Part shown: positions 24,227-51,414 of the stretch, piece by piece
Numbering within the stretch: position 1 is the stretch's first letter
Layout of the letters: each line of letters opens with the position of its first letter
Assembly: GCF_000612805.1 (NCBI RefSeq)
Contig: NZ_HG964409.1
Span: 124,001 to 188,000 of the forward strand
DNA: 64,000 bases
DNA from: Bacillus ndiopicus
Lineage (GTDB): Bacteria > Bacillota > Bacilli > Bacillales_A > Planococcaceae
Reading direction: 5' to 3'
Position numbers and translations under genes: made by a program
Notes under the pieces: model-generated
Told to the model about the DNA's origin: nothing
Databases searched by the model: none
Seen by the model: the letters and a program-made list of their open reading frames with translations, nothing else

Positions 24227-24242
24227 GAAGCTACTATAGTAT

Positions 24243-24497
24243 GAAAGCTTTGATAAGGAGAAGTACGTCGCGCATGCTCTAAAAGAGAAGACTACCATCG
24301 GCTGAAAGTAGTCTGAGCCTAGGCAACACGGAAATGCACCTTTGAGCGCTTTGCTGAAATCTAGTAGGCGAGCCGAAGTCGTCCCTCGTTAAAAGGACTT
24401 TAGAGCGGAAGGAGGACTAATTAGTCCCTTTCAAGCAGAGTGGAACCACGCTAACAATGCGTCTCTGTCACAATTTTTGTGACGGAGGCGCTTTTTT
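24243..24497 (+). ncRNA. T-box leader controlling cysS (cysteine-type)
   Basis: The T-box core AGAGTGGAACCACG lies at 24437-24450 and a terminator at 24459-24491 with a T run to 24497. The upstream part has Stem I features: AAGGAGAAGTACG at the 5' side and a likely specifier TGC (Cys) at 24335-24337 in GAAATGCACC. The bulge reads TGGA, which pairs with a tRNA end UCCA; U73 is the discriminator of tRNA-Cys, so both readouts agree on cysteine. Uncharged tRNA-Cys should allow readthrough into cysS. Confidence 0.93.
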
Positions 24498-31144: not shown

Positions 31145-31164
31145 GGTTTCTGTTGTGAATTATC

Positions 31165-31257
31165 CATTTGTACCGTAGACAGTAGGGGGGCTTTATGCGC
31201 TTAATATTCCTACCGAGGACAACGGAATTCGGAATCTTTTTAAGATGATGACTTTCT
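31165..31257 (+). ncRNA. L10 leader of rplJ-rplL
   Basis: The conserved strings GTACCGTAGACAGTAGG and TCCTACCGAGGAC (31169-31220 region) form the kink-turn-type fold known as the L10 leader, to which L10(L12)4 binds. It sits between the promoter and the attenuator hairpin. Confidence 0.85.
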
Positions 31258-31294
31258 GCCTCTATGTCTATTTAGATATAGAGGCTTTCTTTTG
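31258..31294 (+). terminator. Attenuator of rplJ-rplL
   Basis: GCCTCTAT (31258-31265) pairs with ATAGAGGC (31278-31285), followed by TTTCTTTT, inside the leader. Together with the L10 leader this allows excess L10-L12 to stop transcription. Confidence 0.85.
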
Positions 31295-31333
31295 TCGGTA
31301 TAAATGACTCATTCTAATAGGAGGTGTCATCAA

Positions 31334-33077: not shown

Positions 33078-33189
33078 AAAATGCAAAATTATTATTTTGA
33101 GGAAGTATGCCCTTTTGTGTAATTTTAATTTTAAGTAGGGTGTGTTTTACAAGAATTTTTTGTATCAAAGTGTTAGCACATGCGCTTTC

Positions 33190-33260
33190 TGTTGCAAAAG
33201 CAGAGCGTCAGCAACAACGCAGCAACTGTTTTTTGTACCGAAAGCAACGCGTCAGGTACA
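33190..33260 (+). repeat. Two tandem hairpin modules with shared loop and covarying stems
   Basis: Module 1: TGTTGC, 15-nt loop AAAAGCAGAGCGTCA, GCAACA (33190-33216). Module 2: TGTACC, 15-nt loop GAAAGCAACGCGTCA, GGTACA (33234-33260). The loops agree at 12 of 15 positions, while two stem pairs differ and both keep pairing. Confidence 0.75.
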
Positions 33261-33328
33261 GATACAGAAGACTCCTACCTCTAAGGTGGCGAGATAAGTG
33301 CTTAGTTTGCTTTTTTTCAGCGAGAGTT

Positions 33329-33445
33329 CCAACTTTCGTTGAATTAAGATAAAGCCTCTGGCAAATGTCACAGGTTTTTTAGGAGAGTTTTATAAGCTCA
33401 CTCGAAAAAATCTGTATACAATTACGCCGGGGCGTAATTGATTTT
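33329..33445 (+). repeat. Dispersed repeat, copy A (rpoB leader)
   Basis: It shares AAGATAAAGCCTC and the ACAATTACGCCGGGG region, with similar spacing, with the copy at 45845-45980. Each copy is preceded by an inverted repeat ending in AAG. This copy includes the 10-bp perfect hairpin CAATTACGCC-GG-GGCGTAATTG (33419-33440). Confidence 0.65.
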
Positions 33446-33449
33446 AACC

Positions 33450-33486
33450 GAAAATGAGCTTTTAATAAAGACTCGTTTTCTTTTTG
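33450..33486 (+). terminator. Attenuator-like hairpin before rpoB
   Basis: GAAAATGAG (33450-33458) pairs with CTCGTTTTC (33472-33480, one G-U), followed by TTTTTG. It lies about 70 nt upstream of rpoB inside the transcribed leader. Confidence 0.7.
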
Positions 33487-33557
33487 TCTTTCGAAATCAT
33501 ACACCATTTGTATGGTTTTGCAAAGACCTATTATCGCTTTATTGAGGGGTGAATGAG

Positions 33558-50982: not shown

Positions 50983-51414
<432 letters not shown>

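What the first reader, a model, noticed from the sequence alone, without database searches (positions are those of the whole stretch)
33190..33260. Tandem hairpins with identical loop logic and compensatory stem changes in the rpoB leader
Two modules 44 bp apart have 15-nt loops matching at 12 of 15 positions (core AAGCA..GCGTCA). The stems TGTTGC/GCAACA and TGTACC/GGTACA differ at two base pairs that change together. Keeping loop sequence and stem pairing while the stem sequence drifts is evidence for selection on structure, either as RNA or as a palindromic mobile unit. I recall similar AAAGC..GCGTCAG hairpins between genes in Lysinibacillus genomes.
Basis: partly seen in the sequence, partly recalled or inferred. 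Interest (0 to 1): 0.6.

Follow-up and report, generated by a model that had tools for sequence, protein, structure and literature searches.

The report
Hairpins of a dispersed mobile repeat
The two look-alike hairpins in front of the RNA-polymerase gene rpoB are inner pieces of a roughly 285-base non-coding mobile DNA element, present in about 50 places in this bacterium and absent from the same spot in its relatives, and other copies of the element carry, as an optional part, a 'mystery RNA' (Bacillaceae-1) already listed in the Rfam database.

Summary
In detail: two hairpins, loops 12/15 identical, stems differing by two compensated pairs. They are not a feature of the rpoB leader. They lie inside a left-truncated copy (33158-33442) of a high-copy, non-coding, hairpin-built mobile element (54 matching clusters in this Metasolibacillus genome). 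The rpoB leader is conserved in relatives and none examined carries the element; two congeners show the uninterrupted site. Other copies, with empty sites in named relatives, show clean insertion just 3' of TTTAT or TTTAA, a fixed right end (GGCGTAATTGAT), no inverted termini and no target duplication. Copies occur only in this bacterial family, very unevenly (0 to 103 per genome). An optional module is the Rfam 'Bacillaceae-1 RNA' (RF01690), of unknown function. Closest known kinds: Bacillus cereus bcr repeats (TTTAT-linked) and, in footprint, IS200/IS605 single-strand transposons. No transposase was found: the IS200/IS605, RAYT and IS110 types tested are absent from this genome. Identity as a mobile repeat is secure; how it moves is inferred.

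The parts
33158..33442 (+). whole element copy, left end missing, right end intact; inserted in the rpoB 5' leader
   Evidence: blastn to full-length copy L001 over window 33220-33454, 74% identity, E=4e-31; empty sites in two congeners
33156..33166 (+). 5' arm of outer module-c hairpin (TTTTTTGTATC)
   Evidence: pairs with 33261-33269 in the predicted fold; same nesting in L035
   Evidence: sequence; alignment A2 and pair counts
   Evidence: sequence; alignment A2 and pair counts
33261..33269 (+). 3' arm of outer module-c hairpin (GATACAGAA)
   Evidence: predicted fold
33272..33293 (+). module d hairpin CTCCTACC..GGTGGCGAG
   Evidence: homologous to CTCCCACCTCTACAGGTGGTGAG in the other copies
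33317..33344 (+). internal hairpin TTCAGCGAGAG..CTTTCGTTGAA
   Evidence: predicted fold
33339..33353 (+). internal partner of the (here lost) left end, TTGAATTAAGATAAA
   Evidence: matches CTGAATCAAGATAAA of full copies (row L007)
33370..33416 (+). hairpin CACAGGTTTTTT..AAAAAATCTGT next to core GGCAAATGTCACAG
   Evidence: homology to GGCGGATGTCACAG core; fold
33419..33442 (+). right-end hairpin CAATTACGCC..GGCGTAATTGAT; element ends at 33442
   Evidence: exact right-end pattern at G000:C7:157431-157442 = window 33431-33442; followed by host TTTAACCG as in empty sites

Best explanation
The tandem hairpins are internal modules of one copy of a non-autonomous, non-coding, multi-hairpin mobile DNA element. 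SHOWN: the family has fixed ends (CTTGATTCAG-like on the left, GGCGTAATTGAT on the right), a modular interior, about 50 copies here, and inserts precisely 3' of TTTAT or TTTAA with no target duplication. The window copy landed in the rpoB 5' leader of this lineage, between conserved leader hairpins, and lacks its left end. SHOWN: the junction TTTAW-CTTGATTCAG pairs with an internal CTGAATCAAGWTAAA and both sides covary. INFERRED: the element moves as a folded single strand, handled in trans by an HUH (Y1-type) or comparable enzyme that this genome no longer encodes or that was not recognised, the internal segment helping to choose the TTTAW target as guide sequences do in IS608 (this step about 0.4). 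INFERRED: it has no dedicated function in rpoB expression; it is a tolerated passenger of the leader mRNA.
For: Window copy aligns to dispersed full-length copies, E=4e-31; 54 clusters in the genome. Right end GGCGTAATTGAT: 50 exact copies here, 0 for the reversed control. Both ends seen in over 40 own loci. rpoB leader otherwise conserved; no element signature in the other ybxB-rpoB spacers read; M. meyeri CAAGAATTCAGTTTATTTTAACCG versus window CAAGAATT[..TTGAT]TTTAACCG. Exact filled/empty pairs elsewhere: CTTTTAA[CTTCTTTCAG..AATTGAT]TAAATC in L. sphaericus SDF0037 versus CTTTTAATAAATC in several other Lysinibacillus loci; TTTTAT[CTTCATTCAG..ATTGAA]GAAGTGAAC in L. xylanilyticus L107 versus TTTTATGAAGTAAAC in L108; own L021 AAACTTTTAT[..]GCAAAAGG versus G002 AAACTTTTATGCAAAAGG. 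Terminal stem: 90.2% of cells paired, 29 double-changed cells against 7.1 shuffled, 0/500. Fifth target base versus internal partner: T:A 24, T:T 0, A:A 0, A:T 22. Near-identical ~193 bp copies in G190 point to recent movement.
Against: No mobilising enzyme identified: Y1 transposase (PF01797) is absent from this genome and from copy-rich G018 and G035; IS110 (PF02371) is absent here and in G001, G002. RAYT-like genes in congeners are flanked by a different repeat. Copies that carry a Bacillaceae-1 module often lack the internal partner, yet sit at TTTAW too (L104), so the partner is not always present. The window copy itself lacks the left end, so its own target cannot be read. Elements lie mostly on the sense strand between co-directional genes (40 versus 14), which could mean RNA-level selection.
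Confidence: 0.88

Rival explanations
1. Same mobile family, but moved by a double-strand, TTTAT-specific site-specific recombination, as suggested for the Bacillus cereus bcr repeats, not as a folded single strand.
For: bcr elements are 100-400 bp and linked to a TTTAT motif (PMC6542083); insertions here abut TTTAW; no Y1 enzyme in several copy-rich genomes.
Against: No TTTAT at the right end, no repeat of the crossover sequence on both sides; long self-complementary ends that covary fit single-strand recognition better.
Confidence: 0.3
2. The element is kept as a functional RNA: a structured leader or sRNA that stabilises or regulates the mRNAs it sits in.
For: Very stable fold (L001 -80.3 kcal/mol, z -6.1; window z -4.6); stem covariation; sense orientation 40 versus 14; one module is Rfam RF01690.
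Against: Positions not shared between close relatives, patchy copy number 0-103, free shuffling of modules, the RF01690 module in both orientations within one element. Mobile palindromes also keep pairing.
Confidence: 0.1
3. A regulatory RNA element belonging to the rpoB leader.
For: It lies between the rpoB promoter and start codon on the sense strand.
Against: Not found in the other ybxB-rpoB spacers read, including two congeners with the uninterrupted site; the same element sits before many unrelated genes.
Confidence: 0.02

Closest known systems
Bacillus cereus group repeats bcr1-bcr3 (group A)
   Same: 100-400 bp, non-coding, tens of copies, intergenic, structured, MITE-like, often in UTRs; mobility tied to TTTAT (PMC6542083, PMC3446304).
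   Different: Different family of bacteria (found only in the family of this genome); modular interior; a TTTAA variant with a matching internal segment; sequence relation to bcr1 not tested because no bcr1 sequence was available.
IS200/IS605 single-strand transposons (IS608) and their non-autonomous derivatives
   Same: Insertion 3' of a fixed short sequence, no target duplication, no inverted termini, hairpins near ends, target complementary to an internal stretch (IS608 target choice is by base pairing, abstract of PMC5934647).
   Different: No tnpA/tnpB in or near the element; the complement is part of a 15-bp stem, not a separate short guide; no Y1 gene in this genome.
REP/REPIN with RAYT transposase
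   Same: High-copy palindromic extragenic repeats.
   Different: Much longer; the RAYT-like genes of congeners are bordered by GTGCCTGGCAC repeats instead; none in this genome.
Rfam RF01690 Bacillaceae-1 RNA
   Same: Passes the gathering score as an internal module of many copies.
   Different: RF01690 is catalogued as a stand-alone sRNA of unknown function and uncertain strand (PMC2864571, PMC4333381); here it is an optional, invertible module of mobile DNA and is absent from the window copy.

Membership tests
bcr group A repeats | short, non-coding, multi-copy, intergenic, linked to TTTAT | tested here: met
bcr group A repeats | sequence similarity to bcr1-3 | not tested
   no bcr reference sequence held; PMC524882 not in library
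bcr group A repeats | restricted to the B. cereus group | tested here: not met
   found in genera of this family; none in 24 single genomes from other families
classical MITE | terminal inverted repeats | tested here: not met
   ends CTTGATTCAG and GGCGTAATTGAT are not inverse; the left end pairs with an internal segment
classical MITE | target-site duplication | tested here: not met
   TTTAA|TAAATC empty versus TTTAA[..TTGAT]TAAATC filled
IS200/IS605 | insertion 3' of fixed short target without duplication | tested here: met
IS200/IS605 | Y1 transposase gene in element or genome | tested here: not met
   PF01797 0 hits in own, G018, G035
IS200/IS605 | target recognised by base pairing with element | tested here: inconclusive
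   24:0/0:22 association, but copies with RF01690 module lack the partner and no experiment
REPIN/RAYT | RAYT gene flanked by the same repeat | tested here: not met
IS110 / bridge RNA | IS110-type transposase present | tested here: not met
   PF02371 absent from own, G001, G002
RF01690 Bacillaceae-1 RNA | covariance-model score above gathering threshold | tested here: met
   met by a module of other copies; the window copy has no hit
rpoB leader regulatory RNA | conserved at the rpoB leader of relatives | tested here: not met

The most novel reading that the evidence does not exclude
A family-wide, self-complementary mobile DNA element whose own internal segment specifies the insertion target (ATAAA for TTTAT, TTAAA for TTTAA), carried by an enzyme acting in trans that is not one of the known Y1 or IS110 types; the Rfam family Bacillaceae-1 RNA is one of its interchangeable DNA modules and not an sRNA gene.
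Probability: 0.3. Interest if true: 0.72.

Novelty: new variant of a known kind. Interest (0 to 1): 0.52.

Why it matters
It turns an odd pair of leader hairpins into a well-bounded mobile element with clean empty sites in named species, so the movement mechanism can be tested. The match between the target base and an internal base across two genera predicts that changing the internal segment retargets insertion. It also offers an explanation for an orphan Rfam family (RF01690): its multi-copy spread and uncertain strand follow if it is a module of mobile DNA, which bears on proposals that it is a CsrA-binding sRNA (PMC4333381). Finally, insertion of a ~285-nt structured element into the leader of an essential transcription gene shows how well such leaders tolerate passengers.

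Tried and rejected
Cis-regulatory rpoB element: rejected by empty sites. RAYT/REPIN: RAYT genes of congeners carry other flanking repeats. IS200/IS605 and IS110 enzymes as present-day movers: absent from this genome. Target duplication of AT: rejected because TTTAA insertions still end TTGAT. Plasmid or phage carriage: no matches. Rfam on the window: no hit for the element. Replication-strand bias (G003 32/39, G035 62/90) looks real but is not separated from gene orientation, so it was not used as evidence for lagging-strand insertion. Literature: no description of this repeat found in the held library.

Full report
WHAT IS THERE. The two hairpins are real: stems TGTTGC/GCAACA (33190-33216) and TGTACC/GGTACA (33234-33260), loops 12/15 identical. 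A search of the genome with the loop pattern brought up further copies in the same hairpin but in larger, shared surroundings. A blastn search with one full copy (L001, ~240 bp) found 62 matches, which with the earlier search make 54 clusters in this genome, and the window aligned over 33220-33454 at E = 4e-31. So the hairpins are two modules of a repeat running from about 33158 to 33442. In the window a third, outer copy of the same hairpin encloses them (33156-33166 with 33261-33269); a nested copy of this kind is also seen at L035, and the same tandem pair occurs in Lysinibacillus xylanilyticus (L107).

ANATOMY OF THE FAMILY. Full copies run from CTTGATTCAG (directly after host TTTAT or TTTAA) to GGCGTAATTGAT, usually about 120-400 bp. 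The only ORF listed over the window copy is a mechanical one of 81 codons. The fold is far more stable than shuffles (L001 -80.3 kcal/mol, z -6.1).

PAIRING. For module c, 23 sequences gave 82.6% paired cells, 6 of 10 pairs with double changes, and 13 double-changed cells against 5.0 in shuffles (0/500). For the terminal stem (15 pairs, 38 distinct sequences) 90.2% of cells pair, with 29 double-changed cells against 7.1 (0/500). Partners were chosen by similarity to a consensus, not by complementarity. In an independent extraction anchored outside the variable base, the fifth target base and its internal partner were T:A in 24 and A:T in 22 copies, with no T:T or A:A, and three further copies with C at the target base; all 18 informative G190 copies are of the A:T type, and within the other loci alone it is 24:0/0:4. 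Relatedness of copies reduces the weight of the p-values. Palindromic DNA can also keep its pairing through template switching, so covariation alone does not prove an RNA function.

MOBILITY. The genome is taken to be a Metasolibacillus: the nearest named loci are Metasolibacillus sp. BHI2 and M. meyeri (YbxB 92 and 91% identical). In the rpoB leader both lack the element and show the uninterrupted site; no element signature was found in the other ybxB-rpoB spacers read. Other loci give exact filled/empty pairs in named species: between rpoB and rpoC in L. sphaericus SDF0037, CTTTTAA[CTTCTTTCAG..GGCATAATTGAT]TAAATCATTC, against CTTTTAATAAATCATTC in several other Lysinibacillus loci; between secE and nusG in L. 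xylanilyticus, TTTTAT[..]GAAGTGAACAGCAG, against TTTTATGAAGTAAACAGCAG in L108; and in this genome against congeners at L021, L030, L038, L058 and L151. Because TTTAA insertions still end in TTGAT, the terminal AT is the element's own and there is no target duplication. Copy number is extremely uneven: 136 of 261 genomes of the order sample have at least one exact right end, from 1 to 103 copies (one or two hits in a genome can be chance); near-identical ~193-bp copies in G190 (L258, L264, L277, L281) point to recent bursts. It was not found on the plasmids, phages or viral contigs searched.

WHO MOVES IT. Unknown. IS200/IS605-type Y1 transposase is absent from this genome, G018 and G035, the RAYT-like genes of congeners are flanked by another repeat, and IS110 is absent from several carriers. 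The footprint (fixed 5' target, no duplication, no inverted termini, subterminal hairpins, internal complement of the target) is that of single-strand HUH transposition, where target choice by base pairing is established for IS608 (abstract of PMC5934647). I take this as the most likely mechanism (about 0.4), with a TTTAT-linked site-specific recombination as proposed for the bcr repeats (PMC6542083) as the main rival (about 0.3). A point against an obligatory guide: copies with the Bacillaceae-1 module often lack the internal partner yet sit at TTTAW.

LINK TO A KNOWN RNA FAMILY. Rfam RF01690 (Bacillaceae-1 RNA) scores well above threshold inside many copies: L262 and L280, each with one hit on either strand; own-genome loci L010, L011, L015, L016, L017, L020, L024, L026, L028 and several G190 loci. 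In 28 loci originally fetched for an unrelated reason (the ybxB gene), five RF01690 hits appeared, all inside element copies; some of those loci were, however, put on the list after elements had been seen in them. RF01690 was published as an RNA of unknown function (PMC2864571), its strand in doubt and a CsrA-binding sRNA role proposed (PMC4333381). Members outside this family of bacteria were not examined. The window copy has no such module.

EFFECT ON rpoB. The element lies between the conserved GTATGCCC..GGGTATAC hairpin and a conserved terminator-like hairpin GAAAATGAG..CTCGTTTTC-TTTTT of the leader, disrupting neither. Elements in general lie on the sense strand between co-directional genes (40 versus 14, p = 5e-4), which may reflect tolerance of sense-strand copies, selection, or target availability. 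I found no reason to assign it a role in rpoB regulation.

VERDICT. Observation confirmed; leader-element reading not supported; mobile-unit reading supported and extended. Identity about 0.9, mechanism open.

Noticed in passing
window 33085-33548 and L079-L138 leaders: The rpoB 5' leader (~188 nt without the insert) is strongly conserved in about 40 species of the family, with a predicted 41-pair structure including a terminator-like hairpin GAAAATGAG..CTCGTTTTC-TTTTT and a hairpin GTCTTTCGAAATCAT..GATTTTGCAAAGAC near the start codon; no Rfam match. Little covariation because the sequence hardly varies.
   Followed up: partly
L089, L127 (rpoB leader): Lysinibacillus yapensis and L. telephonicus carry an extra ~80 nt with further inverted repeats after the terminator-like hairpin of the rpoB leader.
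   Followed up: no
L193, L195, L196, L198: RAYT-like Y1 genes in congeners sit in a conserved neighbourhood and are bordered by inverted GTGCCTGGCAC repeats, probably their own REP-like repeat.
   Followed up: partly
G000:C3:130798-130823 (L210); G003:C1:1338036-1338061 (L228); G035:C1:79799-79824: A free-standing perfect palindrome ATCAATTACGCCNNGGCGTAATTGAT between genes, without the rest of the element; similar head-to-head pairs in several genomes.
   Followed up: no
L029, L033, L035, L036: Tandem ~32-bp hairpins CTGCGACGAGTAACCGCAGGAGCAA in 2-4 head-to-tail copies as a module of the element.
   Followed up: no
G003, G035 whole genomes: Element orientation switches in large blocks that look like replichores (32/39 and 62/90 by best split); not separated from gene-orientation bias.
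   Followed up: partly
G035:C1 ~2.01-2.12 Mb and 2.55-2.63 Mb: 14 hits to IS110-type transposase, most of them clustered in two regions.
   Followed up: no
window 24241-24469, 31155-31299, 50994-51090: Ordinary Rfam hits: T-box, L10 leader, S10-Clostridia leader.
   Followed up: no
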